Shown: one piece after another, positions 621 to 55,986 of the stretch
Position numbering within the stretch: the first letter of the stretch is position 1
Layout: the number at the start of each line of letters is the position of its first letter
Source of the DNA: Steroidobacter sp.
GTDB taxonomy: Bacteria > Pseudomonadota > Gammaproteobacteria > Steroidobacterales > Steroidobacteraceae
Direction of reading: 5' to 3'
NCBI GenBank assembly: GCA_025929585.1
Contig: JAICPY010000017.1
Coordinates: 1 to 57,218, forward strand
Length of the DNA stretch: 57,218 nucleotides
The notes under the pieces: model-generated
Seen by the model: the letters and a program-made list of their open reading frames with translations, nothing else
The model's database searches: none
What the model was told of the DNA's origin: nothing
Position numbers and translations under genes: made by a program

Positions 621-763
621 GTGAGCGGCGGACGGCGGACGGCGGACGGTGGAAGAATCCGTAAGACGTCACAGGAACATCGAAGACATACTCGTACATA
701 ATCGCCAATACTTTACTCTGATCCGATTCCTTCACCGTCCGCCGTCCGCCGTCCGCCGCTCAC
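621..763. repeat. Inverted word-repeat element 1 (GCGGACG words)
   Basis: Left arm at about 621-661 and right arm at about 724-763 are inverted copies of one another. Each holds three tandem 7-nt words GCGGACG bounded outside by GTGAGCGG and inside by GGTG[GA]A[AG]GAATC. The arms are nearly identical over about 40 nt and enclose about 62 nt without repeats. The left arm lies right in front of mobA. The right arm lies inside the 3' end of moaC and encodes its last residues. The same word builds the element at 25336-25494. A transcript would fold into a long hairpin inside the Mo-cofactor operon. Confidence 0.9.
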
Positions 764-1225
764 CGACTTCCCTCCTGACTTGCTGAGCAGCCGGGTCTCA
801 CTGATGACGATGTCGTGCGACAAAGCCTTGCACATGTCGTAAATCGTAAGTGCCGCGATGCTCGTACCAGTCAGCGCTTCCATTTCGACCCCCGTCTTGT
901 GATGCACGCTGACCGTGCACGTCACCACAGCATCATCGCCATCCATCGCAATGTTCACATTACATTTCTCGATGCCCAATGGATGGCAGAACGGAATCAG
1001 ATCATGAGTGCGTTTCGCCGCCATGGTGCCGGCGATGATGGCCGTGTGAAACACCGGGCCCTTAGCGCTGTTGAAGCCATTGGCCCGTAAGGCTTCGGCA
1101 ACCGCGGCGGGAAAGCGGACTCGAGTCTGCGCTGTCGCGGTCCTGGAACTGACTGCCTTGTGGCCGACGTCGACCATCGCCGGCGCATTGGTTGAATCGA
1201 CGTGCGTAAACGGTGACGAGGACAT
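713..1225 (-). CDS. moaC: Cyclic pyranopterin monophosphate synthase MoaC with repeat-derived tail
   Basis: Converts the MoaA product to cyclic pyranopterin monophosphate, the second step of molybdopterin synthesis. 170 residues. Family motifs visible: FTHVD near the N-terminus, [51 protein letters not shown] with the catalytic region, and KSGGKS near the end. The family normally finishes close to KSGGK; here about 16 extra residues follow, containing [10 protein letters not shown], which is the translation of the right arm of repeat element 1. The extension is therefore probably recent and dispensable. Third gene of the moe/moa/mob operon, with 79 nt from moaA. Start ATG at 1225 fits the family N-terminus. 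Confidence 0.95.
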
Positions 1226-1304
1226 AGGCCGAGTGTAGCGGGGCGAGCCGGGTATCGAAACAGTGAACTCGTCCGAGTGGTGAGCGGTTGCGGAGCCTGA
1301 CCTG

Positions 1305-2357
1305 CTATCCGCCGATGTAGTACATCTCGATCTTCCGGATCGGATGTTCTTGCGTGTGGATCGACGCGCGCAACTCGCTATAACGATCTTCTCGCCGGGT
1401 CCAAGCGCCCGTTATCAGCTCCAGCAACTCCGTATCGGTCGCCCCGGCGCGCAGCGGCGTGCGCAAATCCAATCCCGACGTGGCAAACAGGCAGGTGTAG
1501 AACGCCCCTTCCGAAGACAAACGCCCTCGAGTGCATGCGCCGCAAAACGGATTGGTCACGGAGGAAATAAAGCCAATTTCACCTGCACCGTCGTCGAAGG
1601 CATATCGCTCTGCGACTTCGCCATGATAGTTCTCTTGCACGGCATGCAGGGGCCATCGCTCGGCGATCGTTTGCAAGAGCTCCTTGGAAGCCACGACACG
1701 ATCGAGGCTCCAATGGTTGCGATTGCCGACGTCCATATATTCAATAAAGCGCACGATAATGCCGGTGCCCCGGAAGCGTTCCACCAGATCGAGCGCGGTG
1801 TGATCGTTCAGTCCACGTTGAATCACTGCATTGATCTTGATCGGCGTTAGCCCTGCATCGAATGCTGCTTGGATGCCTTCCAGCACACGTTCGCGTTCTG
1901 CAAAACCACCGCTCATTTGCTTGAAGATGTCCGGATCGAGCGAATCCAGACTGACGGTAATTCGATGAAGGCCGTTCGCTTTGAGCTCCGCAGCGTGCTG
2001 TGCAAGCAGGACGGCATTCGTCGTCAATGCAACGTCTTCGACGTTCTCGATTGCGGTGAGCTCGCCGACGAGCTCCGCAAGATTCGGACGTAACAAGGGC
2101 TCTCCGCCTGTGAGACGCACCTTTCGCACCCCCAATTGAACGAACAAGCGTGTTAGCCGCGTGATCTCTTCGAACGACAAACGCTCGGAAGATTTGAGGA
2201 AACGATAATGCTCGTGGAACGTCTCGCGCGGCATGCAGTACGGACAGCGGAAGTTGCAACGGTCCATGACCGAGATGCGCAAGTCGTGCAAGGGCCGGCC
2301 CAAGCGGTCATGGGGTTTGACCTTCTGCGGCCATTCGACGATTCGACCAGGATTCAT
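1305..2357 (-). CDS. moaA: GTP 3',8-cyclase MoaA (radical SAM)
   Basis: Catalyses the radical-SAM rearrangement of GTP that starts molybdenum cofactor synthesis. 350 residues, usual family length. The N-terminal radical-SAM cluster CNFRCPYC places Cys at residues 34, 38 and 41. [11 protein letters not shown] is the SAM-binding GGEP motif. The second cluster typical of MoaA lies near residues 270-290 ([13 protein letters not shown] then a third Cys). The protein ends in IGG, matching the conserved C-terminal Gly-Gly that MoaA proteins need. It starts 3 nt after the moeA stop codon, so translation is probably coupled to moeA. Confidence 0.97.
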
Positions 2358-2360
2358 GAG

Positions 2361-3557
2361 CTACCAACGATACAGTGGTACGACCGTTCCCTCTGGAATC
2401 AACGTCGGACCTGGCGGGAGCTCGACAAATCCGTGCGTGCCGAGCAACGAAGTGAAATCGCCAGAACCTTGTGTCGGGCGTGCGTGTGCGAGGAGCGTAG
2501 CACCGTCGCTCGCAAGCGAGACTGGCAGGAAAAATGTGAGTGTAGGCTTAACCTCGAACCGTGAATCCAGTACGGCAGACTCTGCTTTCGGCTCCTCTAC
2601 GCCTTCTGCCACCGCAAGGCCACGGTAGACATATCGAGCGAGACACACCAGTGTAGAGACCGGATTGCCCGGAAGAGCGTACACGCACTGACCTGCGCTG
2701 CCTACGCCGAACCACATCGGTTTTCCCGGACGCTGAGAAATCTTGTGAAAGACGGGCTTCACTCCAAGCTCTTGCAGAACTTGCGGTACATAGTCGAATC
2801 GTCCCATGGAAACCCCGCCGCTCAAGATCAACGCGTCGTTGCGTTCCAAATGTGCGGCGAGACGATCGCGCAAGACAGGCAGATCGTCGGGTAAATGGTC
2901 CTGACCCACATGTTCAAAGCCTCGATTGCGCAAGGCAGCCACGACGGCGTAGGCATTCGAGCGATAGATTTGCCACTCGGCAACAGGGTAGCCGGGCTCA
3001 ACGAGCTCATCGCCGGTGGAGATGACGACAATGCGAGGCCGCGGGGTCGCTGCGGCGCTCGCCAGCCCGGCGGACGCAATCACTGCAATTTGAGTAGGTC
3101 CCAGGCGCGTATGTGGTGACAGTAGCAGTTGGCCGGCGCGACAATCTATTCCGGTACGATGAATGTTCAGACCAGGTGATGCGGCTGCATCCTCGGCAAG
3201 CTCCGCTGTTCCGTCACGAATCGAGAGCTTCTCGACGGGCACGACGCAGTCGCAGCCATGCGGAACCATTGCACCCGTCATGACTTCGATGCACGTGGTT
3301 CGATCTTCGAGCACTAATGGACTTGCTCCCGCAGCCTGAGTGCCGGCGATCTTGAAGGTCCTTCGGCCCGCTGCGTAGGCCGATTGTGCAAACGCGACGC
3401 CGTCCATGGTGACCCGATCGAACGGTGGCTGATCGCGAGTCGCTCGAATTTCTTCTCGCAACACCGAACCGCAGAGACGATCGAGGACTAAGGATTCGGC
3501 AGCGCGGACCGGAACGTTCGCGCGGATGATTGCTTCTGCTTCTGCGGGCGAGATCAT
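2361..3557 (-). CDS. moeA: Molybdopterin molybdenumtransferase MoeA
   Basis: Inserts molybdate into adenylylated molybdopterin. 398 residues from the ATG at 3557 (E. coli MoeA 411). Motifs: LREEIRATRDQPPFDRVTMDG near the N-terminus, EVMTGAMVPHGCDCVVPVE, VISTGDELVEPG, LSGGVSMGRFDYV and ALPGNPVS, all typical of MoeA. An upstream in-frame extension reaches 3728, but that part runs through the terminator of the preceding gene and has no family similarity, so 3557 is chosen (MISPAEAEAII resembles MoeA N-termini). First gene of the operon; its promoter must lie between the terminator at 3675-3711 and 3557. Confidence 0.95.
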   Translation of the reverse strand: MISPAEAEAIIRANVPVRAAESLVLDRLCGSVLREEIRATRDQPPFDRVTMDGVAFAQSAYAAGRRTFKIAGTQAAGASPLVLEDRTTCIEVMTGAMVPHGCDCVVPVEKLSIRDGTAELAEDAAASPGLNIHRTGIDCRAGQLLLSPHTRLGPTQIAVIASAGLASAAATPRPRIVVISTGDELVEPGYPVAEWQIYRSNAYAVVAALRNRGFEHVGQDHLPDDLPVLRDRLAAHLERNDALILSGGVSMGRFDYVPQVLQELGVKPVFHKISQRPGKPMWFGVGSAGQCVYALPGNPVSTLVCLARYVYRGLAVAEGVEEPKAESAVLDSRFEVKPTLTFFLPVSLASDGATLLAHARPTQGSGDFTSLLGTHGFVELPPGPTLIPEGTVVPLYRW

Positions 3558-5224: not shown

Positions 5225-5382
5225 TGCGTAAGACCTCTGGTCGGCAAAAGGCGAATCATCTTAAAACGCGACGCTGCAATTGGCTATCGATCTAGTTGGC
5301 TTCGAGACAGGGGCTGCCACTCGCCCGTGTAGGCCGGTCTATGATGCTTTAGTCTTTCGTCTCTTTGGATTGCCATCGCCTA

Positions 5383-6066
5383 ATGACCGCCGCCGAGCTT
5401 GACGCCGTTCGCTTGAGTTTGTCCGTCGCGCTGCGCAGCGTGCTCGTCAGCCTTCCCTTCGCCGTGTTGGTGGCTTGGCTTCTTACGAGGCGGAAGCTGC
5501 GCGGCAAACTCCTGCTCGATGTGCTCGTGCACTTGCCTCTCGTTCTACCGCCTGTCGTGGTCGGTTATCTGCTACTGCTCGTGTTCGGGGTGCGCGGCCC
5601 GATCGGGCAGTGGCTGGACGAGGCCTTCGGAGTGCAGTTGATTTTCACGACGGGTGGTGCTGCTTTGGCCACGGCGGTGATGTCTTTTCCGTTGGTCGTG
5701 CGTGCGATCCGCTTGTCCCTGGAGGGCATCGATCGTGGTCTTGAAGACGCTGCACGAACGCTCGGGGCCGGCGCTTGGGATCGGTTTTTTACCATCACCC
5801 TACCTCTCATGTTACCGGGAATTCTGGCCGGTTCGGTGATCGCTTTCGCGGCTGGGCTCGGAGAGTTCGGAGCCGTCATCACCTTTGCTTCCAACATTCC
5901 TGGAGAGACACGTACGCTGCCGCTGGCGCTCTACACGGCGTTGCAAACCCCCGGAGGCGAGACTTTGGCTGCGCGCCTTGCCGGCATCTCGATAGCATTG
6001 GGGCTGATGGGATTGGTGGCGGCGGAGCTCATCGCCCGTCGAATGCATACGGCATTGGGGCGTTGA
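5383..6066 (+). CDS. modB: Molybdate ABC transporter permease ModB
   Basis: Membrane channel of the molybdate importer. 227 residues from ATG 5383; a TTG six codons earlier is rejected because MTAAELDAVRLSL matches ModB N-termini. About five hydrophobic segments are visible. The cytoplasmic ABC-contact loop is EGIDRGLEDAARTLGAGAWDRFF, the EAA motif of this family. GEFGAVITFASNIPGETRTLPLALY is a signature of ModB. Its stop overlaps the modC start. No periplasmic binding protein ModA is encoded upstream, so substrate delivery must come from elsewhere in the genome. Confidence 0.95.
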   Translation: MTAAELDAVRLSLSVALRSVLVSLPFAVLVAWLLTRRKLRGKLLLDVLVHLPLVLPPVVVGYLLLLVFGVRGPIGQWLDEAFGVQLIFTTGGAALATAVMSFPLVVRAIRLSLEGIDRGLEDAARTLGAGAWDRFFTITLPLMLPGILAGSVIAFAAGLGEFGAVITFASNIPGETRTLPLALYTALQTPGGETLAARLAGISIALGLMGLVAAELIARRMHTALGR

Positions 6067-11271: not shown

Positions 11272-11756
11272 GGGACTTAAACGTAACGGGCGATGCTCAA
11301 AGTCGCACAGCATACCGGCGCGGCGAACGATGCGCCAACGGGACGAACAGCCAATACTCGAGCGGCTGCTCCGGCACGCTGACTGCATGTGTCCGAAGTG
11401 TCCGATGCAGTTGCGTTAGCCGACATGCCGTTCGTTGGTTGAACGATATGTAGGTTTGTTCGTCTCATCCTTTGCGTATTTCTGTGACAAGCGCGTTCTA
11501 GGTGCGGCGCGACTGCAACCTTTCGCCGCAAGCCACTCTCTGATGATCGTAAATGTCTTGAGTCGATGCATACCGCGAGATATCACTTAATCAACGACGA
11601 GGTGCCGCCGCGTAACAAAATGACCGCGCGCGGTGTAACCAAATCACACCGCACGGCATCTGAGTCAGGAAGGGGCGGCGAAAAGCTGCATCGTTGAATA
11701 GGCAAGCGAATTGCCGCACAGCATCGCTGTGAGGGGATGAAGGAAGAGGTGTTCAA
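11272..11756. other. 485-nt gap between small gene and araC
   Basis: No convincing gene. It must hold the promoters of the divergent genes on both sides. A 12-nt palindrome ACCGCGCGCGGT lies at 11623-11634, followed by a hairpin GCGGTGT (11630-11636)/ACACCGC (11646-11652), about 105-130 nt before the AraC-type gene; these could be regulator sites. A plus-strand run of 29 codons at about 11330-11419 has a CxCxxC-like tail but no ribosome site. Confidence 0.5.
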
Positions 11757-12834: not shown

Positions 12835-13668
12835 TCACAGCGGCGGTTCTTCGCCTGGGCTCGGATCTTCCATCGGATAGGTCGTCAGCCCCTCGTTGCG
12901 CTGCGTATTAGCGGCAGGCGCTGGTTGCGGCTCGGCTCTAGCCGGAGCTGAAGAACTCGCCGTCGGAGGAATCGCTTCTCCGCGTGCGGAGCTCTCGATC
13001 GCTGCGATGAAACTCTGGGCGGGCGCAGGTGCCGCTGGCGCATCGCTGCGAATGATTTCGCTCGCAAGAACGCCTGGGCGCTGATAGAAAAGTTCGTTGC
13101 TGCGATGATCGATCGTCAGCGCAGAGCCATCTAGAGCGACGCCAGCAAACAGACCGCTTGCCCTTGAATACGAATAAACTTGCGCCGTCAGTCCCACATC
13201 CGTGGCGGCAGAGCTCTGGCGGCCGACCGGGCCTGCAGCCACGGAGGCATCCGCACCCAGCGTGACTTTTCCGCCCACGATCCCCTCTATGCTGTGTCGT
13301 GATGTGAATACGAGTACGACGTCCGTCGATTGCACGCCGACCTGGAATCCGAAGCTGCCTCCGGTGAGATTCACGAATATCGGATTGCTCCACTCTCCGC
13401 TATCTCGGCGGACGACCAGTACGCCTTTGCCACGCCGCCCGCCGATCCCTAATCCAACCTTGATCACGTTCGGTACGACGGCCACAGCGTGCGCGCGCTC
13501 GAGCAACCAACTTGGGATGTTTTGCTCCGGCATCCGCAAGAGCTCGTTCAGAACTTGCGTGGATGTCAGTAGGCGCGCTTCCTGTCGCTCAGCAGCGACC
13601 GCGCTCAAGCACGTGAGCATTGAGATCAGAAGGACAGTGAATCGTGCGTAAACTTTTTGCACTCGCAT
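12835..13668 (-). CDS. Secreted SYLF (Ysc84-type) lipid-binding domain protein
   Basis: 277 residues. Signal peptide MRVQKVYARFTVLLISMLT ending near SAVAA. The SYLF domain covers about residues 40-205: SWLLERAHAVAVVPNVIKVGLGIGGRRGKGVLVVR, NLTGGSFGFQVGVQSTDVVLVF, KVTLGADASVAAGPVGR and ASGLFAGVALDGS are all typical. A low-complexity Pro/Ala/Glu tail of about 65 residues follows. The bacterial family is periplasmic or outer-membrane associated with unclear role. It sits just downstream of the kinase gene, with 82 nt between, so it could be co-transcribed with the ECF/kinase pair. Confidence 0.92.
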   Translation of the reverse strand: MRVQKVYARFTVLLISMLTCLSAVAAERQEARLLTSTQVLNELLRMPEQNIPSWLLERAHAVAVVPNVIKVGLGIGGRRGKGVLVVRRDSGEWSNPIFVNLTGGSFGFQVGVQSTDVVLVFTSRHSIEGIVGGKVTLGADASVAAGPVGRQSSAATDVGLTAQVYSYSRASGLFAGVALDGSALTIDHRSNELFYQRPGVLASEIIRSDAPAAPAPAQSFIAAIESSARGEAIPPTASSSAPARAEPQPAPAANTQRNEGLTTYPMEDPSPGEEPPL

Positions 13669-17456: not shown

Positions 17457-17828
17457 ATGTCTAGCAGTTTAAAGATCGTCGCCATTTCTCTGTTGGTCGG
17501 ATGTTCTGTTCAATCAGCGTCCGCAACAGGGGTTGAAGATGCATTTATCGTAAGTACTCGATCTCTTCTCCCGAACCTCGTACAGGTGGCTGACAACATT
17601 CCGGTCCGTCCTCCGGTGCCGCGATTAGCCGACAACATTGCGGTTCGTCCACCGGTTCTGCAGTTGGCAGACAATATTCCGGTCCGTCCTCCGGTGCCCC
17701 GATTAGCGGACAACATTGTGGTTCGCCCGCCAGTTCTACAGTTAGCGGACAACATTGCAGTCCGTCCACCGGTTCTGCAACTAGCGGACAACATCCCCGT
17801 TCGTCCTCCGGTTCCGGCTGTTGCCTAA
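17457..17828 (+). CDS. Exported protein of six 13-residue VRPPV repeats
   Basis: 123 residues, family not recognised. The N-terminus MSSSLKIVAISLLVGCSVQS is a signal sequence with a possible lipobox LVGC (Cys 16, then Ser), so it may be an outer-membrane lipoprotein; ATGVEDAFIVSTRSLLPNLVQV follows as a short unique stretch. The rest is six tandem repeats of the form LADNI[PAV]VRPPV[LP][QR]. Repeats with Pro and with Ala/Val at the variable position form 26-residue higher-order units. It is extended, Pro-rich and Cys-free after the lipobox. GGGAGGGAAG precedes ATG 17457. It is followed 34 nt later by another small exported protein. Divergent from the ECF/kinase pair, which makes it a candidate target; inference only. 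Confidence 0.85.
   Translation: MSSSLKIVAISLLVGCSVQSASATGVEDAFIVSTRSLLPNLVQVADNIPVRPPVPRLADNIAVRPPVLQLADNIPVRPPVPRLADNIVVRPPVLQLADNIAVRPPVLQLADNIPVRPPVPAVA
17586..17822 (+). repeat. Six tandem 39-nt coding repeats
   Basis: Six copies of a 39-nt unit (TAGCGGACAACATT, then a CCGTCCTCCGGT-like part) encode the 13-residue repeats. Synonymous differences among units show they are not all brand new, and units 1, 3 and 6 resemble each other more than 2, 4 and 5. Confidence 0.9.
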
Positions 17829-18147: not shown

Positions 18148-18283
18148 GAAGTGTGCGCCAGTTCACACGGAACTGCCGGATTTGGTCCGCAGGCGTCACA
18201 CTTGGTTCGTTGACATATGTTGAGGCCAATAGCACCCTTGTCGCCGTTGTCTAAAGCAACGCAACAGCAATTGTGTTGCTTTG

Positions 18284-18376
18284 GAAAGGCAAACTCACTG
18301 AAAGGTGAGGACGCAAAGCCACCGGTCTGAAAGTTTTCTAAGACAGCGGGGTTGCCAACGGGAGGTCGTTAACCTG
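18284..18376 (+). ncRNA. c-di-GMP-I (GEMM) riboswitch
   Basis: The sequence has the GEMM-I hallmarks in order: AAAGGCAAA, a hairpin CTCAC-TGAAAG-GTGAG with GAAA tetraloop, the strongly conserved GGACGCAAAGCCACCGG, a second hairpin GGTCT...AGAC, and GCGGGGTTGCC closing with the first strand (GGCAA/TTGCC). It binds cyclic di-GMP. It lies about 100 nt before the start of the TlpA-like gene and the envelope-machine genes. No T-rich terminator is visible after it, so control may be by translation or Rho; whether c-di-GMP turns expression on or off cannot be read. Confidence 0.9.
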
Positions 18377-24498: not shown

Positions 24499-25248
24499 AT
24501 GGCTCGCGGTGCGCACCTTGCTCCAGACGCGACCGCGTTTACCAGTGTTATTGCGCGTTCGGCAATTCGCAGCGGATTGTTGTTAGTCACGTTAGCACTG
24601 GTTGCTTGTGGGTCCACGCCAACCTCAGCCCCTAACCAAACGGACAAGACAGTTGCCGCCCAGCCAACGTCCCCGGCTAAAGCGCAACGGGGCAAGCGAG
24701 ACGACAAGCAGGTCGAAAGCGAGGTTGCGTCCCCAGCTGAAGAGCCGCTGCCGGCCGAAGCTGTGAAGCAATTCGAGGCGGCCGTCGTACACATGAATGC
24801 GGGCGATCTCGCGGCTGCGGAGCAAGGCTTCCGTGCGATCGCAGCTGCCTATCCAGCGTATTCGGGTGCTCTCGTGAACCTAGGCATTTTACAGTCGAAG
24901 GCAGGGCGGTTAGAGGATGCAGAGAAGAGCTTCAACAGCGCGATCGAGCGTGATGCAAAGAACGCTGCGGCCTTCAATCAGCTCGGCATCGTATACCGCA
25001 AATTAGGCCGCTTCCAAGACGCCGAGCAGGCTTATCGTCGCGCAGTCGAAGCAAATCCGAACTACGCAAATGCCTACTTCAATCTCGGGGTGCTGTGCGA
25101 TCTGTATCTGCAACAGCCTGAGCGTGCTCTAGAAGCCTACGAGCGATATCTAGAAGTCTCGCCGTCACCGGACGCTCGCGTGAATGCTTGGGTCACTGAG
25201 CTGAAGAAGCGAATCGGTGCCGAGCCGCGCGCAGCGAGGAGCGAATGA
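24499..25248 (+). CDS. TPR lipoprotein of the envelope machine (AglT/GltE-like)
   Basis: 249 residues from ATG 24499; a longer upstream frame only shadows the previous gene. Lipobox LVAC is at the end of LLLVTLALVACGS, with Gly at +2, which suggests an outer-membrane lipoprotein. A low-complexity linker is followed by TPRs from about residue 90: LVNLGILQSKAGRLEDAEKSF, FNQLGIVYRKLGRFQDAEQAY and FNLGVLCDLYLQQPERALEAY. Its stop overlaps the next start (ATGATGA). Such a lipoprotein is a standard part of the Agl-Glt-like sets. Confidence 0.9.
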   Translation: MARGAHLAPDATAFTSVIARSAIRSGLLLVTLALVACGSTPTSAPNQTDKTVAAQPTSPAKAQRGKRDDKQVESEVASPAEEPLPAEAVKQFEAAVVHMNAGDLAAAEQGFRAIAAAYPAYSGALVNLGILQSKAGRLEDAEKSFNSAIERDAKNAAAFNQLGIVYRKLGRFQDAEQAYRRAVEANPNYANAYFNLGVLCDLYLQQPERALEAYERYLEVSPSPDARVNAWVTELKKRIGAEPRAARSE

Positions 25249-25754
25249 TGAAGTTGCAAAAGCTCAGCACGTGGATTATTGCGCTTACGGCTTTCGCGGG
25301 TGCGACGTTTGCTGCCGAACCGGATCAGGTAAACAGTGGACGGCGGACGGCGGACGGTGAAACAGAGACGAGTCGCTCCGCTGCGGACACTGCGGGTCCG
25401 GCAGTCGCTACGAGCCCAGCCGCATCTCCATCGACTACCGAGGCAAACATCGCCGCCCCCGTTTCACCGTCCGCCGTCCGTCGTCCGCCGCTCACGACTG
25501 CGCGAACCGGAAGCGATCGTCTCGAACTGGATACCACTGTCGTCACCGGCAACCGTGAGCTCCCCAAGGTCTTGTATATCGTCCCTTGGAAGAAGGCCGA
25601 TCTCGGTGATCTCCCGGCGCAGCCTTTCAATACGTTGTTGGATGAGGTTCTAACGCCCGTGGACCGTGACGTTTTTCGTCGAGAAGTGACCTATTACGAT
25701 GCTTTGGGTGAGCGCACAGACGCGACGCAGTCGACATCTCAGCCTGGTCCCTGA
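25245..25754 (+). CDS. Small secreted protein of the machine with repeat-element insertion
   Basis: 169 residues, family not recognised. Signal peptide MMKLQKLSTWIIALTAFAGATFA. The probable functional part is the C-terminal about 80 residues (LELDTTVVTGNRELPKVLYI, VPWKKADLGDLP, DEVLTPVDRDVFRREVTYYD). Between the two lies a linker coded by a complete inverted word-repeat element (25336-25494): the left arm reads SGRRTADGE and the right arm reads [11 protein letters not shown]. The element is 159 nt, a multiple of three, so the frame survives. Overlaps the preceding TPR lipoprotein gene and precedes exbB by 43 nt. Confidence 0.85.
   Translation: MMKLQKLSTWIIALTAFAGATFAAEPDQVNSGRRTADGETETSRSAADTAGPAVATSPAASPSTTEANIAAPVSPSAVRRPPLTTARTGSDRLELDTTVVTGNRELPKVLYIVPWKKADLGDLPAQPFNTLLDEVLTPVDRDVFRREVTYYDALGERTDATQSTSQPGP
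25336..25494. repeat. Inverted word-repeat element 2 (GCGGACG words) inside a coding region
   Basis: Left arm 25336-25366 (GTGGACGG, then GCGGACG words, then GGTGAAACAGAG); right arm 25461-25494, the inverse, with outer end GTGAGCGG. The spacer is about 94 nt and unlike that of element 1, although the arms are nearly the same sequence. Located entirely within the gene at 25245-25754 and in frame. Confidence 0.9.
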
Positions 25755-27453: not shown

Positions 27454-28392
27454 ATGGCAACGATGACCGCCTATTATCGTAATTACGAGCTACCTTGGAC
27501 GGCATCCGAGGAAGAGCAACAGCGCTTACGGCGCCTGCTCGTGATTTGTTTCAGCGTGACGCTGCTGCTGTGCGTGCTGCTGCCGCTGCTTCCGATTCCA
27601 GAGCAAACAAGCGATCAGGTACAGACAGTGCCGCCGCGATTCGCAAAGCTGGTGCTCGAGCGAAAGCCGACGCCACCACCTCCGCCTCCTGCTCCGCCGA
27701 AAGTAGATCCCTTGCCAAAACCGACGGAGCAAAGAGTCCCACAGCCGCAGACGCAACCGATTCCTCAAAACAGGGTAGAGCAGGCGCGCGAAAAGGCCGC
27801 CCAGTCGGGATTACTTCCATTTCAGGAGCAGCTTGCCGCGCTTCGCGAGAACTCCGTTTTGGAGAAGGCCGGTCAAACCAAAAACTTGAGCGGCAAAGCA
27901 GGTGCGACGACACGTGCAGAGCGATCGCTGATCACATCGAAAGTTGGAACCGGCAGTGGTGGCATCAACACGGCTAGTTTGAGTCGCGGCTACGGTGGAG
28001 GCGCTGGTTCGCTGAGCGGACATGAGACGACGCAGGTGACTTCCACGCTTGCGACTGGGCTTGCAGCTGGAGACAACGTTCGCAGAGGTGGCAGTGGCAA
28101 AGCTTCACGCAGCGAAGAAGAAATCGCGCTGGTATTCGATCGTAACAAAGGTGCGATCTACTCCATCTACACCCGAGCGCTGCGAGATAAACCAGAGCTG
28201 CAGGGAAAGCTGGTGCTCGAGCTCACGATTGCGCCCGACGGCTCGATCACGCGTTGTGAAGTCGTTTCTAGTGAGCTGAATGACCCGGAGCTCGAGCGAA
28301 AGCTCGTCGCTCGCGTCAAGATGTTCCGGTTTGAAGCCCGCGATGTGGGCACGATTACGGTGACTAAGCCGATCGACTTCTTTCCGGCGTGA
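27454..28392 (+). CDS. TonB-like / AgmX-type energy-transducing protein
   Basis: 312 residues. Cytoplasmic N-terminus (TAYYRNYELPWTASEEEQQR), one membrane anchor near residues 28-48, a Pro-rich rod (KPTPPPPPPAPPKV to PQTQPIPQN), a Gly/Ser-rich region around 165-210, and a C-terminal TonB-like domain about 220-312 (ALVFDRNKGAIYSIYTRAL, LVLELTIAPDGSITRCEVVSS, FRFEARDVGTITVTKPIDFFP), which matches AgmX/PglI C-terminal domains. It should connect the ExbB/ExbD motor with the periplasmic TPR scaffold. Last gene of the machine; repeat element 3 begins at its stop codon. Confidence 0.93.
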   Translation: MATMTAYYRNYELPWTASEEEQQRLRRLLVICFSVTLLLCVLLPLLPIPEQTSDQVQTVPPRFAKLVLERKPTPPPPPPAPPKVDPLPKPTEQRVPQPQTQPIPQNRVEQAREKAAQSGLLPFQEQLAALRENSVLEKAGQTKNLSGKAGATTRAERSLITSKVGTGSGGINTASLSRGYGGGAGSLSGHETTQVTSTLATGLAAGDNVRRGGSGKASRSEEEIALVFDRNKGAIYSIYTRALRDKPELQGKLVLELTIAPDGSITRCEVVSSELNDPELERKLVARVKMFRFEARDVGTITVTKPIDFFPA

Positions 28393-28506
28393 GGTAGTTA
28401 GGGGGTAATGATCAGGGGGTAGGGGATAGTAAGAAAAAGAACGCGCACGTGCGCTCTCGTTCTGACTGCCCCCTAGCCCCTGATCAATACCCCCTTCCTA
28501 CTCCCG
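28389..28506. repeat. Inverted word-repeat element 3 (AGGGGGTA words)
   Basis: Left arm about 28389-28433, right arm about 28461-28506. Over a 31-nt core (AGGGGGTA.TGATCAGGGG and so on) the arms are 27/31 identical in inverted orientation. The loop holds a smaller hairpin AGAACG/CGTTCT. Loop-proximal ends read GTAAGA and GTCAGA. It overlaps the stop codon of the TonB-like gene and could end the machine transcript. Confidence 0.88.
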
Positions 28507-37496: not shown

Positions 37497-37497
37497 G

Positions 37498-37585
37498 TCC
37501 CCGGTCCCACAGTCCGCGGTCTAGCCAGAAGGTTTCAGAGGCGGTCAACGCCTCTGTCAGTCCGCAGTCCAACGACTGCGGACTG
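37498..37585. repeat. Inverted word-repeat element 5 (AGTCCGC words) with stacked hairpins
   Basis: Left part about 37498-37531 has AGTCCCC, GGTCCCAC, AGTCCGC and GGTCTAG in a row. Then a hairpin CAGAGGCG/CGCCTCTG (37536-37556) and a perfect 12-bp hairpin CAGTCCGCAGTC/GACTGCGGACTG (37558-37585, loop CAAC). Loop-proximal GCCAGA and GACAGA as in the other elements. Sits between metK and the SAH riboswitch and may separate their transcripts. Confidence 0.8.
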
Positions 37586-37621
37586 CAGACTTCCTCCTCG
37601 GCCTTGCGCTACACTAGGCGC

Positions 37622-37746
37622 CCGCTCACCGAGGGGCGCTGCAGCAGTGCTAGGGAACTCTCCCGTCACCTGTCAGGCTCGGTGTGCATCTTGCGAGGCG
37701 TTCAGCGGTATCGATCCGATCCGCGCGCCTTAGCAACGGCGCCCTC
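37622..37746 (+). ncRNA. S-adenosylhomocysteine (SAH) riboswitch
   Basis: The conserved pieces of the SAH riboswitch are present in order: ACCGAGGGGCGCTGCAGC (37628-37645), GTCAGGCTCGGTG (37672-37684) and GCAACGGCGCCC (37733-37744). ACCGAG pairs with CTCGGT, and GGGCGC can pair with GCGCCC to give the pseudoknot. It ends about 22 nt before the ahcY start and next to its GGAG, so SAH binding would favour translation of the SAH-degrading enzyme, as known for this class. Confidence 0.93.
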
Positions 37747-37768
37747 CAACTTGTAATCGGAGATGATC

Positions 37769-40146: not shown

Positions 40147-40178
40147 AGTCCGCAGTCCCTAGTCCCTAGTCCGCAGCC
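40147..40178. repeat. Single-arm word repeat (AGTCCGC / AGTCCCT words)
   Basis: AGTCCGC, AGTCCCT, AGTCCCT, AGTCCGC in direct succession, period 7, in the gap after purU. The same word builds element 5, about 2.6 kb upstream. No inverse partner arm is visible in the gap. Confidence 0.75.
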
Positions 40179-40186: not shown

Positions 40187-40285
40187 GTGAACGGCGTGTA
40201 GACGTGCGGACGTGCAGAGGTCAGAGCGGTAGTGTCTGCCCATCTTTCTTACCTATGCACCTCTACACCTCTACACGTCCTTCAC
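40187..40285. repeat. Inverted word-repeat element 7 (GTGTAGAC words)
   Basis: Arms of exactly 35 nt, 40187-40221 and 40251-40285, are 28/35 identical in inverted orientation. Left arm words GTGTAGAC, GTGCGGAC, GTGCAGAG; right arm (reverse complement) GTGTAGAG, GTGTAGAG, GTGCATAG, all with period 8. Inner ends GGTCAGAG and GGTAAGAA. 29-nt loop. Lies in the gap between purU and the alpha-glucosidase. Confidence 0.9.
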
Positions 40286-44549: not shown

Positions 44550-44646
44550 AGTGACGGGTGACATGTGACGGGCAAGAGGGCCTAAAGCCGGACCTGGGCG
44601 CTTAGGTTGAACGTGGGTGAACCATTCTGGCCCGTCACCCGTCACT
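44550..44646. repeat. Inverted word-repeat element 8 (GTGACGG words)
   Basis: Left arm 44550-44575 (AGTGACGG, GTGACAT, GTGACGGGC, then AAGAGGGCC); right arm 44629-44646 reads inversely as AGTGACGG, GTGACGGGCCAGA. Loop about 53 nt. It fills the start of the gap between the divergent lacI and MFS genes, 15 nt from the lacI start codon. Confidence 0.85.
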
Positions 44647-46800: not shown

Positions 46801-47067
46801 ATGGGAATTCTTATCTGGTTGATCGTTGGCGGCGTCGTGGGATGGCTAGCAAGCATCATCATGCGCACCGACGCTCAGCAAGGCATCCTGCTGAACGTGA
46901 TCGTCGGTATCGTCGGCGCTCTGCTTGCGGGATTCATCATCTCCCCAATGATTGGCGTCGGCACGATCAACGACGGCGTGACCCTGGCGTCGTTCCTGGT
47001 CTCGCTGGTTGGAGCAGTGGTGCTGCTCGCGATCGTAAATTTGTTCCGCCGAGGGAGCGTGCGATAA
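46801..47067 (+). CDS. GlsB/YeaQ/YmgE family small membrane protein
   Basis: 88 residues with GAGGAGG before ATG 46801. Family signature GILIWLIVGGVVGWLASIIMRTDAQQGILLNVIVGIVGALLAGFI; three hydrophobic segments. Called transglycosylase-associated, but no enzymatic role is shown; often stress-linked. Followed directly by a 7-bp hairpin TCACCTC/GAGGTGA (47074-47093) and repeat element 9. Confidence 0.95.
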   Translation: MGILIWLIVGGVVGWLASIIMRTDAQQGILLNVIVGIVGALLAGFIISPMIGVGTINDGVTLASFLVSLVGAVVLLAIVNLFRRGSVR

Positions 47068-47081
47068 GGCGCATCACCTCC

Positions 47082-47172
47082 GTGACGAGGTGACGTGGTG
47101 GCGGGGTGAGAGAGTCACGGTGTGCAGCAAGCTAGCTGCCCTCTGACTTCCTCACCTCCTCACTGCGTCACC
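47082..47172. repeat. Inverted word-repeat element 9 (GTGACGAG words)
   Basis: Left arm 47082-47119: GTGACGAG, GTGACGTG, GTGGCGGG, GTGAGAGA. Right arm 47142-47172 reads inversely GTGACGCA, GTGAGGAG, GTGAGGAA, then GTCAGA at the loop side. The outer end of the right arm overlaps the stop codon of the extensin-like gene. It lies between two convergent genes, so it could serve as a shared terminator. Confidence 0.85.
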
Positions 47173-47911
47173 GACACGTTTTGTACGGTCCCCTGTCCAA
47201 ATGGAAGTGATCTCGGTGGGCCGCGTTGTAATCGGGGCTGAGTACGGCGTCGAAGAATCGGCAGGCGCCGGTTCTTACTTCCTTCAGAAACTGCGCGTTG
47301 CGATCGTTCTCGTTCCAATCCGCCAGCACCCGAATTCTCTCGCCGTTCTCTAGCTGAAAGCCGGCGATATCGAAGGCTTCCGCCGTGGCGTGGCGGCTGC
47401 GTGTGGCTTGCGGGCGGCCATAGACGTTGCGGCAGGAATAGCTGCCGAAGTGCTCTATTCGGCTAACACGCGAGCCGAAATACGCCGCGGCCGTTGGCTG
47501 CAATACGTGACGCTCCCACAATGCTAGCGACACTGCCGCTCGACATGACAGCGAGAAAGGTTCAGCGACTGAGGTGCTTGTTCTGTCGATGCGAACCGCG
47601 TTGTGGAATCCGCACGCATAGCCAGTAATGCGGTCAGGCACGGGGGCATACTCGAACCCGGATGTGGCGAGCACATCGAGGCAGGCGGTACGATCCTTCG
47701 TAAGTCGCCGCAGCTTGATCCCGGTAAGGATGTTCGGCGTCGCATTCAATTCAAGCGGAGACCAAGGGTTGTAGTCATTCGGGATCTCGATTTCCCCCAA
47801 ACGCAGGGCCGCAACCGACACAGCAGCGAGCGATACCACGAGCAGGATGAAGATCTTCACGAGCTGAAGTGACCTCGACACAGCTTTTCGAGTTCGTATG
47901 CTATCGAGCAT
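47168..47911 (-). CDS. Extensin-like (peptidase-like) family protein
   Basis: 247 residues. One N-terminal membrane anchor (VKIFILLVVSLAAVSVAAL), then a periplasmic domain. Extensin-like family segments: CGFHNAVRI, LSCRAAVSLALWERHVLQPTA, FGSYSCRNVYG, RSRHATAEAFDIAGFQLENG, CRFFDAVLSPDYNAAHRDHFHLD. The His/Asp pattern (RHATAEAFDI and HRDHFHLD) resembles metal-dependent D,D-carboxypeptidase folds, so a role in the cell wall is plausible. The ATG at 47911 overlaps the alkB start region on the other strand; a GTG at about 47860 may be the true start. Confidence 0.88.
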   Translation of the reverse strand: MLDSIRTRKAVSRSLQLVKIFILLVVSLAAVSVAALRLGEIEIPNDYNPWSPLELNATPNILTGIKLRRLTKDRTACLDVLATSGFEYAPVPDRITGYACGFHNAVRIDRTSTSVAEPFSLSCRAAVSLALWERHVLQPTAAAYFGSRVSRIEHFGSYSCRNVYGRPQATRSRHATAEAFDIAGFQLENGERIRVLADWNENDRNAQFLKEVRTGACRFFDAVLSPDYNAAHRDHFHLDRGPYKTCR

Positions 47912-48503
47912 GAAACAGGCCGATCTGTTCCCTCTTGAGTTACCTTGGGGTCTGGATTATCGGAGCGACTTCCTCTGCGTATCCGAAGAAGATTCGTTGC
48001 TCGAAGCCATTCGCGCATTGCCGCTACAGGAAGCACAGTACAAGGAGTTTACCGCGCGCCGCCGAACGCTCAGTTACGGCTCGTCCTATGATTTCTCCAC
48101 GAATGAATCGCTACCTGCGGCCGCCATCCCGGATTTCCTGCGCGACCTGCGAGCTAAAATAGCTGCATGGTGTGGCATCGATCCCGAGCGCTTCGTGCAC
48201 GCACTCGTCGCGGAATATCGTCCTGGTACGCCGTTGGGATGGCATCGCGATGTCCCCGAGTTCGAGCTCATCGCCGGCATCTCGCTGTTCGGCACGTGCC
48301 GCATGCGATTCAGGCCCTATCCGTGGACGCCGACGCGCAAGAAGGAAATCTTTGCGCTCGAGCTGGCCCCACGCTCCGGTTATATCCTGAAGAATGAGGC
48401 GCGTTGGAACTGGCAGCACAGCATTCCGCCGACCAAGGAATTGCGCTACTCGATCACCCTGAGGACGCGGCGTGCCGGAACCGTGGATACGAATAGGAGT
48501 TAG
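47910..48503 (+). CDS. alkB: AlkB-like 2-oxoglutarate/Fe(II) dioxygenase
   Basis: 197 residues from ATG 47910 (ATG 47898 also possible). Iron ligands in GWHRDVP (His and Asp) and WQHSIPP (His); the 2-oxoglutarate Arg pair is in RYSITLRTRR. LSYGSSYDFST and LVAEYRPGTPLGWH are the substrate-side segments. Would remove alkyl lesions from nucleic acid bases; the ALKBH-like sequence alone does not settle substrate. The start lies within 2 nt of the divergent extensin-like start, so promoters overlap coding sequence. Confidence 0.92.
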   Translation: MKQADLFPLELPWGLDYRSDFLCVSEEDSLLEAIRALPLQEAQYKEFTARRRTLSYGSSYDFSTNESLPAAAIPDFLRDLRAKIAAWCGIDPERFVHALVAEYRPGTPLGWHRDVPEFELIAGISLFGTCRMRFRPYPWTPTRKKEIFALELAPRSGYILKNEARWNWQHSIPPTKELRYSITLRTRRAGTVDTNRS

Positions 48504-48621
48504 ACTCAGTGGCACTTAAGGTAAGGGTTGACGGTTGACAGCAAGAGGTCCGTCTTTGTCTGGCCGTCAACGGTCAACCGCAACGCGCCGCTTAACTAAG
48601 CGGCATGGAGTTAGACTCGGT
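48496..48621. repeat. 15-nt direct repeats flanking element 10
   Basis: GGAGTTAGACTCAGT (48496-48510, containing the alkB stop codon TAG) and GGAGTTAGACTCGGT (48607-48621) are 14/15 identical direct repeats. They bracket about 96 nt that hold the GGTTGAC element. This looks like a footprint of insertion or tandem duplication. Confidence 0.8.
48526..48580. repeat. Inverted word-repeat element 10 (GGTTGAC words)
   Basis: Left arm 48526-48542: GGGTTGAC, GGTTGAC, AG followed by CAAGAGGTCC; right arm 48562-48580 reads inversely GCGGTTGACCGTTGACGG then CCAGA. Arms are short, about 17-19 nt. The inner GCAAGAGGTCC closely matches GCAAGAGGGCC of element 8. Confidence 0.82.
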
Positions 48622-48712
48622 ATGTGATGAAAGCGACAAGAATGTACGGTCTGGATGATCCGGCCACTTTCTAGCGTTCATCACTTCATCACATTCATCA
48701 CATTCATCACTG
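48620..48712. repeat. Inverted word-repeat element 11 (GTGATGAA words)
   Basis: Right arm 48674-48712 reads inversely as GTGATGAAT, GTGATGAAT, GTGATGAA, GTGATGAA, CGCTAGA. The left arm near 48620-48645 has only one clear word (TGTGATGAA) followed by AGCGACAAGA, so this element is lopsided. The right arm ends 7 nt before ATG 48720. Confidence 0.7.
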
Positions 48713-48719: not shown

Positions 48720-48959
48720 ATGAACCCGCAATTCAGAGAACTGTACGCCATGCGCGGTCGTGCCCTGACGGTCATGGGGTATTCAGTCGAGAACATGCAG
48801 CAAGAAGATCTCTACGCGGTGATCGGTTACTTGCTCGAGCTTTCCGCGGATCGTTCACCCGAGGTGCGTCTGGCCCAAGAGGCGCCTTTGGGTTCCCCAC
48901 CTGGCAAGAGCGTGCCCGGTATGGATCCGCCTAAGAATGATGGACTAGTCGAGGGATAA
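48720..48959 (+). CDS. Small hypothetical protein
   Basis: 79 residues: MNPQFRELYAMRGRALTVMG, YSVENMQQEDLYAVIGYLLEL, then a Pro/Gly-rich tail. The first half is helical and reads like a real small protein; no known domain. It has no Shine-Dalgarno because element 11 runs up to 7 nt before the ATG. A perfect hairpin GCGACGCAC/GTGCGTCGC (48961-48982) follows the stop at once. Coding status is likely but unproven. Confidence 0.55.
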   Translation: MNPQFRELYAMRGRALTVMGYSVENMQQEDLYAVIGYLLELSADRSPEVRLAQEAPLGSPPGKSVPGMDPPKNDGLVEG

Positions 48960-48983: not shown

Positions 48984-49203
48984 GTGACGAAGTGACGAAG
49001 AGGTGACGGAGTGACAGGGTGACGACGTCAGAGGTGTGCGCCATGCGGAGTGAGGCTTGCGGACTTCTCGGCGAGAACGCGAGCACGTCTCTTCTGATCG
49101 CTGACCGATGATAAAGGCCCTGACTTCATTCCTCCGTTGTTTATCGCAGGCCACACGTCTCTCCATCTGACGTCGTCACCCCGTCACTCCGTCACCTCGT
49201 CAC
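48984..49203. repeat. Inverted word-repeat element 12 (GTGACGRR words)
   Basis: Left arm 48984-49031: GTGACGAA twice, GTGACGGA, GTGACAGG, GTGACGAC, GTCAGAGG. Right arm 49167-49203 reads inversely GTGACGAG, GTGACGGA, GTGACGGG, GTGACGAC, GTCAGATGG. Period 8. The loop is unusually long (about 135 nt) and has no gene. The right arm ends 12 nt before the ATG of the nuclease gene. Confidence 0.92.
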
Positions 49204-54273: not shown

Positions 54274-54580
54274 ACAGACTCATCCGATAACGACACCAAG
54301 CTCGCTTTGCGGCCCGCTATGAAGCGCCTGGGTGCTGATCCTGTCCTCATTCTCTGGGTAGGTGCGGTGACACAGTTCCGTCCTTGGGATTCCATCGGCT
54401 GAATCCGGGAAAACCTTAAATAGGTAGGTGGCTGTGACAATTGGCAATCTTCAAAATTGGGCTCGAAGGCTCAGAATTGCTCGTGGCTCGCGGCCCGAGA
54501 CGGCTCAGCCCGCGAGCCTGGCTTTTACTGCCGGGCCGCACCACACTTTCGCATTCCGCCATTCTTGACGAGACAAGCTG
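54274..54580. other. 307-nt leader between the histidine kinase and metY
   Basis: No gene. It contains the promoters of the divergent genes. On the plus strand GGCTCGCGG (54485-54493) pairs with CCGCGAGCC (54510-54518), followed by TGGCTTTTAC, a terminator-like hairpin 63 nt before metY. Another GGCTCG copy at about 54460 could pair with the same 3' arm, so an alternative structure is possible. It does not match SAM-I, SAM-II or SAH riboswitch consensus as I know them. Confidence 0.45.
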
Positions 54581-55846
54581 ATGAAAGACCAAACCATTGC
54601 GGTTCATGGGGGTTATGAAACCGATCCGACGACTCGGTCGGTTGCGGCACCGATCTATCAAACGGTGGCGTTCGAGTTCGACAGCGCACAGCACGGCGCT
54701 GATCTGTTCAACCTCGCGGTACCGGGGAATATCTACACTCGAATTATGAATCCAACTTGCGATGTGCTCGAGAAGCGGGTCGCGATGTTGGAGGGTGGAG
54801 TGGCTAGCCTGGCTCTCTCGGCCGGCAGCGCCGCGATCAATTATTCCATCCTGAATCTCGCGCAGGCGGGCGACAATATCGTTACGACGCCTCAACTGTA
54901 CGGCGGAACGTACACGCTATTCGCTCACATGCTGCCGAAACTAGGCATCGACGTGCGATTCGCGGCGGGGGATTCGGCCGCAGACCTCGAGAAGCTGATC
55001 GATCGCAAGACCAAGGCAGTGTTCTTCGAAACGATCGGTAATCCGGCAGGCAACATCGTGGACATCGAGGCCGTCACAAAGATGGCTCGCAGTCATGGCA
55101 TTGCCACGATCGTCGACAATACCGTGGCGACACCTGCGCTGCTGAAACCCTTCCAATATGGAGCTGACATCGTCGTTCACTCGGCCACCAAATATATGGG
55201 CGGTCACGGCACGACGCTGGGAGGCGTTCTCGTGGACTCAGGCGCATTCCCTTGGGCCGAGTACAAGGAGCGCTATCCGATGTTCAACGAACCGGAAGCT
55301 TCCTATCACGGCGTCGTGTACGTGGACGCCCTCGGACCTGCCGCTTACATCGGACGTGCGCGAACCGTACCTTTGCGGAACACTGGCTCGGCGCTCTCAC
55401 CATTCAATGCGTTTCAACTCTTGCAAGGCATCGAAACGTTGCCGTTACGAATGGAGCGCCATTGCACGAACACTCAGCGCGTCGCGGAATACTTGAGCGA
55501 GCACAAATCCGTGCAGTGGGTCAGCTATGCAGGATTGAACAACCATCCTCACTATGCGCTTGCGCAGAAATATATGGCGGGCCGAGCTTCGGGCATTCTT
55601 ACCTTCGGAGTGAAGGGCGGTTTCGATGCGGGCGTGAAGTTCTACGACGCGCTGAAACTGTTCAAGCGCCTGGTGAACATCGGCGATGCCAAATCGCTCG
55701 CCTGTCATCCTGCATCGACTACGCACCGCCAACTCACCGAGGAGGAACAGCGCAGAGTCGGCGTGGCGCCCGAGGCGATCCGACTATCGGTCGGAATCGA
55801 AGACATCGAGGACATTCTGGAGGATTTGGATCAGGCGCTGAGGTGA
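54581..55846 (+). CDS. metY: O-acetylhomoserine (thiol)-lyase MetY
   Basis: Makes homocysteine from O-acetylhomoserine and sulfide, using PLP. 421 residues. Motifs: TIAVHGGYETDPTTRSVAAPIYQTVAF, YTRIMNPTCDVLEKRVAMLEGG, ALSAGSAAINYS, PQLYGGTYTLF, IVDNTVATP, and the PLP-Lys in HSATKYMGGHG near residue 205. The long insertion with RYPMFNEPEASYHGVVYVDALG and the SLACHPASTTHRQL ending separate MetY from MetB/MetC. Fits the methionine context of metK and ahcY, although 15 kb away. Preceded by a hairpin leader. Confidence 0.96.
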   Translation: MKDQTIAVHGGYETDPTTRSVAAPIYQTVAFEFDSAQHGADLFNLAVPGNIYTRIMNPTCDVLEKRVAMLEGGVASLALSAGSAAINYSILNLAQAGDNIVTTPQLYGGTYTLFAHMLPKLGIDVRFAAGDSAADLEKLIDRKTKAVFFETIGNPAGNIVDIEAVTKMARSHGIATIVDNTVATPALLKPFQYGADIVVHSATKYMGGHGTTLGGVLVDSGAFPWAEYKERYPMFNEPEASYHGVVYVDALGPAAYIGRARTVPLRNTGSALSPFNAFQLLQGIETLPLRMERHCTNTQRVAEYLSEHKSVQWVSYAGLNNHPHYALAQKYMAGRASGILTFGVKGGFDAGVKFYDALKLFKRLVNIGDAKSLACHPASTTHRQLTEEEQRRVGVAPEAIRLSVGIEDIEDILEDLDQALR

Positions 55847-55847
55847 T

Positions 55848-55986
55848 GTGAGGTGACGGGGTGACGAGGTGACGGAGAGACGACGTCAGAAACGCGCTGA
55901 TGATTCGCTGCTGCCCGGTCCAATGTCGTGGGAGCCAACAGCCTTCCTGATTCGTTCTGACTTCGTCACCCCGTCACCCCGTCACT
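55848..55986. repeat. Inverted word-repeat element 13 (GTGACGRG words)
   Basis: Left arm 55848-55889: GTGAG, GTGACGGG, GTGACGAG, GTGACGGA, GAGACGAC, GTCAGAAA. Right arm 55955-55986 reads inversely GTGACGGG, GTGACGGG, GTGACGAA, GTCAGAACGA. Loop about 65 nt. It begins 2 nt after the metY stop and ends 11 nt before the next ATG, so it fills the whole gap. GTCAGAACGA also occurs in element 3. Confidence 0.92.

What the first reader, a model, noticed from the sequence alone, without database searches (positions are those of the whole stretch)
621..55986. A dispersed family of inverted word-repeat elements with locus-specific words and a shared loop-side motif
At least eleven two-armed elements (621-763, 25336-25494, 28389-28506, 37498-37585, 40187-40285, 44550-44646, 47082-47172, 48526-48580, 48620-48712, 48984-49203, 55848-55986) share a plan: an arm of tandem 7-9 nt words, a loop of about 20-135 nt, and the inverse arm. 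Words differ between loci: GCGGACG, AGGGGGTA, AGTCCGC, GTGTAGAC, GTGACGG, GTGACGRR, GGTTGAC, GTGATGAA. The arm ends facing the loop are alike: 20 of the 22 arms I read have [ACT]AGA, often GTCAGA (28461, 47142, 49026, 49167, 55885, 55955 and others). GTCAGAACGA is shared by elements 3 and 13, and GCAAGAGG[GT]CC by 8 and 10. Such a family is neither CRISPR, REP nor an ordinary terminator. I recall heptamer-like intergenic runs in Xanthomonadaceae but not this two-armed grammar with a fixed loop-side motif.
Basis: seen in the sequence. Interest (0 to 1): 0.87.

Follow-up and report, generated by a model that had tools for sequence, protein, structure and literature searches.

The report
Two-armed word hairpins at gene ends
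This bacterium carries, at the ends of many of its genes, long hairpins built from strings of 7-9-letter DNA words in about a dozen 'dialects', mostly closed by one shared cap word; the pattern is real, simple DNA stuttering does not explain most of it, and its maker and function are unknown.

Summary
All 11 window elements are real; 20 of 22 arms carry [ACT]AGA at the loop end, against 3.3 expected. In 845,794 nt of the same genome I found 122 two-armed elements, against 0, 1 and 2 in three shuffles.

Correction: the words are not locus-specific. They form about 12 genome-wide dialects with 7-9-nt periods. The loop-side motif is a shared cap, GYMAGAR, directly after the last word. Arms converge on the loop with the G-rich strand (113 of 118); convergent neighbours share a dialect in 105 of 117 cases. 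Loops are unrelated to each other.

Elements sit at gene 3' ends (median 7.5 nt) and are scarce in divergent spacers (7 of 100). In 7 of 8 dialect sets neighbouring words are not significantly more alike than random words of the set, which argues against slippage. No target-site duplication, linked RAYT or RNA-strand pairing signature was found. The same grammar, with other words, occurs in a Chloroflexota MAG.

Closest known: Xanthomonas GGGAATC inverted pairs and REP dimers. I read it as a REP-like dispersed 3'-end element, a new variant of a known kind; how it spreads is unknown.

The parts
620..764 (.). Element 1: CGGACGG dialect; left arm 620-666, right arm 717-764. The moaC ORF (713-1225, -) runs through the right arm and stops just inside the loop
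25329..25495 (.). Element 2: CGGACGG dialect; arms 25329-25370 and 25454-25495; lies inside ORF 25245-25754 (+). The loop encodes GPAV.TS, also present in 4 of 5 relatives aligned
28388..28506 (.). Element 3: GGGGGTA(ATGATYA) dialect; caps GTAAGA and GTCAGA; starts at the stop codon of gene 27454-28392 (+)
37497..37592 (.). Element 4: AGTCYGY dialect; between the metK stop (37496) and the SAH riboswitch of ahcY (37625-37751)
40187..40285 (.). Element 5: GTGTAGAG dialect; caps GGTCAGA and GGTAAGA; an AGTCCGC/AGTCCCT array without a partner lies at 40147-40176
44550..44646 (.). Element 6: GTGACGG (7-nt) dialect; caps GGCAAGA and GGCCAGA
47081..47178 (.). Element 7: GTGACGRR (8-nt) dialect; 13 nt after the stop of gene 46801-47067 (+)
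48526..48580 (.). Element 8: GGTTGAC dialect; caps AGCAAGA and GGCCAGA; after gene 47910-48503 (+)
48620..48712 (.). Element 9: GTGATGAAN (9-nt) dialect, left arm degenerate; before gene 48720-48959 (+)
48984..49203 (.). Element 10: GTGACGRR dialect; caps CGTCAGA on both arms; after gene 48720-48959 (+)
55847..55986 (.). Element 11: GTGACGRR dialect; fills the spacer between gene 54581-55846 (O-acetylhomoserine sulfhydrylase-like) and gene 55998-57014

Best explanation
A dispersed, REP-like, non-coding element of gene 3' ends. Each element has two convergent arms, written [dialect word]n-[cap GYMAGAR], on either side of a short spacer that is unrelated between loci and, in the one case that could be tested, looks like older host sequence. 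Shown: family structure, orientation, cap, dialect sharing between arms, 3'-end niche, presence here at sites where the nearest sampled relative has none (gain or loss not polarised), and failure of the slippage model for most dialects. Inferred: arms are copied from a genome-wide pool of the same dialect (by ectopic recombination or an unidentified transposition-like process), because both arms share a dialect but are barely closer to each other than to arms at other loci. Inferred, and weaker: the long imperfect palindrome works as a bidirectional transcript-end hairpin or insulator, since at one well-compared site relatives carry ordinary hairpins. Gene 3' ends may also simply be where insertion is tolerated.
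For: 122 elements against 0, 1, 2 in shuffles. G-rich strand toward the loop in 113 of 118 paired arrays (2 opposite, 3 ties). Of 137 neighbouring array pairs within 260 nt, 117 are convergent, 16 tandem and 4 divergent; 105 of the 117 share a dialect. Cap directly after the last word, without selecting for it: consensus GTCAGA in A8, GCAAGA in B7, GTMAGA in C9, GCMAGA in G7. A dialect-free cap-loop-cap pattern exceeds its reversed control in G000 (177 against 48), G007 (112/28), G002 (79/52), G004 (77/44) and G008 (120/74). 122 gene 3' ends face an arm, median 7.5 nt, 96 within -10..+50; 81 gene 5' ends do so at a median of 51 nt. Spacers of 60 nt or more with an element: convergent 25 of 75, co-directional 81 of 312, divergent 7 of 100. 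metK-ahcY gap in 11 genus-mates: one (G008) has a GTGACG-dialect element there; by eye seven others have an ordinary hairpin and three (G004, G005, G010) none. In the 5 own gaps with an element that aligned on both sides to G007, no word element was detected in G007. Loops share no sequence apart from words.
Against: No target-site duplication. No enzyme linked: one RAYT in the genome, no element in the about 1.5 kb on either side of it. Mismatches in co-directional elements show no bias to G.U over A.C (177 against 191; core only 103 against 105), so there is no sign of fine selection for pairing in the sense RNA. Elements do not replace T-tract terminators: these occur at 4 of 113 gene ends with an element and 12 of 356 without, and are as rare in genus-mates (6 of 120 ends in ten genomes). 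Of the 5 gaps compared with G007 only one looks like a clean insertion (163 against 48 nt for a 128-nt element); the others are 176/101, 299/279, 159/211 and 1651/373 nt, the last also lacking a gene. In the in-gene case only the left arm is a net insertion. The cap is missing or weak in many arms: [CT][CA]AGA in neither arm of 39 of 117 elements. Function is inferred from position only.
Confidence: 0.42

Rival explanations
1. Selected RNA 3'-end hairpins (terminator, Rho stop or exonuclease block); words are only stem material.
For: 3'-end niche; median predicted RNA energy -67 kcal/mol for the 114 of 117 elements of at most 300 nt; ordinary hairpins at the same site in seven of 11 genus-mates (by eye).
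Against: No G.U over A.C bias (the non-word-hairpin control had only 14 informative mismatches, so it was underpowered). T-tract terminators at 4 of 113 gene ends with an element and 12 of 356 without: no sign of substitution. Does not explain dialects or the cap.
Confidence: 0.23
2. Ordinary tandem repeats grown by polymerase slippage, with hairpin-mediated correction of the two arms.
For: 7-9-nt periodicity. Adjacent GGSGATAG words are more alike than pool words (0.40 against 0.23, p=0.0005); GTGACGn and GTTGACn lean the same way (p=0.06 and 0.18).
Against: In 7 of 8 dialect sets adjacent words are not significantly more alike than random words of the set (e.g. GTGACGnn 0.12 against 0.20; AGTCnnn 0.14 against 0.19). 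The own partner is the strict best match for only 18 of 101 arms, about 10 expected. Slippage cannot spread one dialect over many loci.
Confidence: 0.07
3. REPINs moved by a RAYT transposase.
For: Inverted doublets with variable spacers and the same 3'-end niche as REP dimers (PMC3733652 passages); one RAYT in the genome.
Against: No GTAG/CGTC tag common to all dialects. Arms fold on their own only slightly better than shuffles (mean z -0.5; 39 of 223 below -1.5). No element beside the RAYT. G004 and the incomplete G007 have no RAYT match but show cap enrichment; G010 has two RAYTs and shows none.
Confidence: 0.1
4. DNA-level binding sites (nucleoid, cruciform or replication-fork signal) whose words are protein sites.
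For: Core letters fixed while wobble letters vary as if drawn from a pool; no RNA-strand signature; constant G-rich strand direction.
Against: Periods of 7, 8 and 9 nt and about 12 different cores would need many proteins. G-quadruplexes are not the common factor: 7 of 234 arms hold four or more GGG tracts and 105 hold none.
Confidence: 0.15

Closest known systems
GGGAATC heptamer arrays of Xanthomonas, inverted pairs (Rehm et al. 2015, PMC4692102; sections 10, 14 and 16 read, plus search passages)
   Same: Tandem heptamers, intergenic, close to the 3' end of the upstream gene, 70 and 75 convergent pairs in two genomes, under-represented between divergent genes. GGGAATC also occurs here as a minor word: 16 overlapping pattern hits, all on one strand, and one two-armed element so labelled.
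   Different: One word there, about 12 here. No loop-side cap is reported in the sections read. The paper's G-quadruplex idea does not fit here: four or more GGG tracts in 7 of 234 arms. In G448 (another family, two GGGAATC pairs in 390 kb), 0 of their 4 arms had the cap.
REP/REPIN dimers (PMC3116915 and PMC3733652; search listing and passages)
   Same: Inverted doublets at gene 3' ends; as a rule of thumb REP dimers with the tag facing inward have variable spacers.
   Different: Arms are word strings, not single palindromes; no GTAG/CGTC tag common to all; no element beside the RAYT.
TAACTGA heptamer repeats of Beggiatoaceae (PMC4679880; abstract and outline)
   Same: Short tandem heptamers in intergenic DNA, 169 sets in one draft genome.
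   Different: Direct arrays, mostly just upstream of start codons; only one indirect repeat reported.
Intrinsic terminators
   Same: GC-rich hairpin after the stop codon.
   Different: T-tract at 4 of 113 gene ends with an element, much longer arms, loops with a median of 41 nt.

Membership tests
Xanthomonas-type GGGAATC inverted pairs | tandem GGGAATC-like word | tested here: not met
   1 of 117 elements labelled GGGAATC
Xanthomonas-type GGGAATC inverted pairs | convergent pair of arrays | tested here: met
   117 of 137 neighbouring array pairs convergent
Xanthomonas-type GGGAATC inverted pairs | close to the 3' end of the upstream gene | tested here: met
Xanthomonas-type GGGAATC inverted pairs | four GGG tracts able to form a G-quadruplex | tested here: not met
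   7 of 234 arms have four or more GGG tracts, 105 have none
REP/REPIN | GTAG or CGTC tag at the end of the unit | tested here: not met
   Shared tag is GYMAGAR
REP/REPIN | each unit is itself a short palindrome | tested here: not met
   Arms folded alone: mean z -0.5, 39 of 223 below -1.5
REP/REPIN | RAYT gene flanked by the repeat | tested here: not met
   One RAYT, G000:C175; no element detected in the 3,333 nt around it
Intrinsic terminator | U-tract after the hairpin | tested here: not met
   T-tract terminator at 4 of 113 gene ends with an element
MITE | target-site duplication | tested here: not met
   Outer-flank common substring 3.20 against 3.19 permuted; edges are fuzzy, so weak
MITE | shared internal sequence | tested here: not met
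   Loops share only word matches
Slippage-born SSR | neighbouring units more alike than distant ones | tested here: not met
   Not significant in 7 of 8 dialect sets; met in GGSGATAG

The most novel reading that the evidence does not exclude
An unrecognised class of dispersed DNA in at least two phyla in which arms of short degenerate words are written around existing host sequence at gene ends by an unknown sequence-templated or pool-copying process. Dialects would be exchangeable and a lineage-specific cap would mark the writing end. It would be neither slippage nor transposition of a fixed unit.
Probability: 0.22. Interest if true: 0.87.

Novelty: new variant of a known kind. Interest (0 to 1): 0.62.

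Why it matters
Short-word intergenic repeats in bacteria are usually set aside as simple sequence repeats. Here they form a grammar: a few dialects, a common cap, a fixed strand direction, a fixed genomic niche, and arms that look like draws from a pool. If that holds, such hairpins sit at the ends of a sizeable share of transcripts in some bacteria and spread by a process for which I found no description. The wobble-letter test and the cap-loop-cap pattern make both questions testable in other genomes.

Tried and rejected
RAYT link: PF01797 in 19 genomes (10 of 19 positive) follows cap enrichment only weakly. Loop homology and loop folding: none (92 loops of 20-150 nt, mean z 0.05 against 0.04 in flanks; z<-1.5 in 9.8% against 5.4%). 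Target-site duplications: none. An apparent direct repeat between the loop's two ends was an artefact of loops shorter than the two windows; it vanished for the 82 loops of 26 nt or more. RNA-strand test: no bias; its non-word-hairpin control was underpowered. Stop codons inside words: 10 of 13 own dialects against 5.5 in shuffles (p=0.005), but 5 of 13 against 5.7 in Litorilinea; the word list was made after looking, so I make no claim. Single arrays: 41 of 308; 20 lie just after a sense 3' end and 10 beside an antisense one, not decisive. The pattern used for the GGSGATAG dialect has a high reversed control (319 against 197 in G000), so only its presence or absence is used. In one search the detector gave 27 raw hits in 20 relative stretches (2 in shuffles); I count 9 as word elements by eye (G002 2, G004 1, G008 2, G044 4) and dropped 18 as GC-rich, weakly periodic matches. 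In the five genus-mate elements 6 of 10 arms have [CT][CA]AGA. In one search (G448) 2 of 8 raw hits were word elements. Rfam: two riboswitches in the window, no match at any element. Papers on intrastrand triplex repeats (PMC4666352) and DNA-structure patterns (PMC4060949): passages seen, no match to this grammar in them.
Full report
What was checked. The window is contig C178 of a 5.13-Mb, 297-contig genome. For one protein its best matches among the loci returned are Gammaproteobacteria MAG ZC4RG14 (88%) and Peristeroidobacter soli (87%). All eleven elements are there. I re-drew the 22 arms: 20 of 22 carry [ACT]AGA in the innermost 22 nt (3.3 expected) and 17 of 22 carry [CT][CA]AGA (1.1 expected). 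By eye seven of the eleven fold as one long hairpin, with predicted RNA energies from -53 to -116 kcal/mol; the other four (37498, 44550, 48526, 48620) reach -25 to -54.

Genome scale. I took 40 stretches of the same genome and joined neighbours (845,794 nt with the window). A detector that needs an inverted pair within 250 nt and arm periodicity of 6-10 nt gave 122 elements, against 0, 1 and 2 in three order-3 Markov shuffles. The sample was not random: all 13 contigs had shown a GTGACG hit. The 8-nt GTGACG pattern alone has 157 hits genome-wide, overlapping ones counted, against 1 for its reversed control.

Grammar. Words fall into about 12 dialects, named by me after looking (117 elements with score >=16): GGSGATAG 16, AGTCYGY 14, GTGACGR 13, GTGACGRR 12, GTGATGNAN 12, GGTTGAC 11, CGGTTAG 7, GTGACTC/GCGGGTC 7, GGGGGTA 5, CGGACGG 4, GTGTAGAG 3, GGGAATC 1, unlabelled 12. 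The unlabelled rows include some probable non-members, such as GCGGCGCAGCGG repeats. The G-rich strand reads toward the loop in 113 paired arrays, away in 2, tie in 3. Of 137 neighbouring arrays within 260 nt, 117 are convergent; 105 of these share a dialect, 4 are kin and 8 differ. After the last word, without selecting for the motif, the consensus is GTCAGA, GCAAGA, GTMAGA or GCMAGA according to dialect; together GYMAGAR, a cap word shared by dialects. It is less clear for GGTTGAC and CGGTTAG, whose register slipped in that test. The core [CT][CA]AGA is found in 109 of 244 inner arm ends against 14 of 244 outer ends; 39 of 117 elements show it in neither arm.

Not slippage, not one moving unit. 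Loops have a median of 41 nt and share nothing but word matches. For the variable letters of the words, adjacent words are not significantly more alike than two random words of the same set in 7 of 8 sets; GGSGATAG is the exception, and two sets lean that way (p=0.06 and 0.18). The two arms of an element are each other's strict best match in 18 of 101 cases, about 10 expected, and that is inflated because detection demands similarity. So arms share a dialect but behave nearly like draws from a genome-wide pool.

Niche. 122 gene 3' ends face an arm at a median of 7.5 nt; 81 gene 5' ends do so at a median of 51 nt. Spacers of at least 60 nt hold an element in 25 of 75 convergent, 81 of 312 co-directional and 7 of 100 divergent cases. 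My gene caller is home-made. Among 469 gene 3' ends followed by at least 60 nt, 113 have an element; by a strict scan T-tract terminators occur at 4 of these 113 and at 12 of the other 356, and at 6 of 120 such ends in ten genus-mates. So elements outnumber T-tract terminators but do not visibly replace them. The conserved MoaC domain ends near residue 155, which is about position 761, where the right arm of element 1 begins; the ORF then runs on through that arm and stops just inside the loop.

Comparison with relatives. In the metK-ahcY gap, just before the SAH riboswitch, this genome has an AGTCYGY element. Among 11 genus-mates, G008 has a GTGACG-dialect element at the same place. Read by eye, G001, G002, G003, G009, G011, G012 and G013 have ordinary hairpins and G004, G005, G010 have none. 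G007, the nearest of 39 relatives by one protein (91%), had no detected word element in the 5 own gaps with an element that aligned on both sides; in one of them an ordinary hairpin follows the stop codon. The gaps are, here and in G007, 163/48, 299/279, 176/101, 159/211 and 1651/373 nt; only the first looks like a clean insertion (128-nt element), and the direction of change is unknown. G007 does carry a CGGACGG element elsewhere. In the in-gene element the loop encodes GPAV.TS, seen in 4 of the 5 relatives aligned, so the loop looks ancestral; the left arm is a net insertion, the right arm is not. That linker varies in all species, so this is suggestive only.

Distribution. The GTGACG pattern hit 3 of 60 family genomes, this one included, the other two with 3 hits and 1 hit; the GGSGATAG pattern hit 5 of 60, this one included. 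The cap-loop-cap pattern, free of dialect, exceeds its reversed control in G000, G007, G002, G004 and G008 and not in the other nine genus genomes. Forward and reverse hits are often the same site, and the reversed control is only a rough baseline. Among the five family members outside the genus, G063 exceeds it (30/14), G044 equals it (19/19) and G046, G065, G080 lie below it. G044 has word elements all the same. In a Litorilinea MAG (Chloroflexota), 165,100 nt in 14 stretches, chosen around pattern hits, hold 32 detected elements (2 inside genes) against 0 in a shuffle, in about a dozen dialects by eye (GTGAAAC, GGGGATT, CACAAAGA, AGTTATC and others); 25 of 28 flanking gene 3' ends lie within 25 nt of the element's edge. 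Their loop ends do not show GYMAGAR by eye. So the grammar is wider than this family, and the cap looks lineage-specific.

Function. Co-directional elements give 177 G.U-type and 191 A.C-type mismatches (core only 103 and 105), so there is no trace of selection on pairing in the sense RNA. The 3'-end role therefore rests on position and on the hairpins at one compared site in relatives. My best reading is a REP-like dispersed element with a possible transcript-end role, spread by an unidentified process. Literature: the listings of the eight searches showed no description of a multi-dialect, capped, two-armed family; the nearest is PMC4692102. Only open-access papers are held, so absence in print is not proven.

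Noticed in passing
window 17581-17816: A 78/39-nt tandem repeat inside ORF 17457-17828 (+), shortly upstream of a c-di-GMP-I-GGC riboswitch at 18279-18360.
   Followed up: no
L133 about 2900-3020, and L051 about 11330-11460: Another word-like repeat landscape (GGGACACGC, GGAAATAGGGACACG words) beside the OAH gene of genus-mate G013 / ZC4RG14, which lacks cap enrichment.
   Followed up: no
L236 (G000:C175): The genome's single RAYT-like gene lies, by eye, between two copies of a direct duplication of some hundreds of bp, not between word elements.
   Followed up: partly
L038 about 12857-12933 (G000:C41 152857-152933): A GGTTGAC element whose loop holds what looks like a complete canonical terminator (AAGCCCGCC-TTTA-GGCGGGCTTTTTT): arms perhaps built around an older terminator.
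   Followed up: no
L202 (metK gap of G002) and L320 about 5342-5520: The hairpin TGTGGGGCCGGCTTCAGCCGGCC recurs at two or more places in G002, which has five RAYT matches: possibly a true REP.
   Followed up: no
L083, L084, L109, L120: Chloroflexota and Pirellulaceae contigs that show two-armed word hairpins with other words; the Litorilinea genome of L109 was followed.
   Followed up: partly
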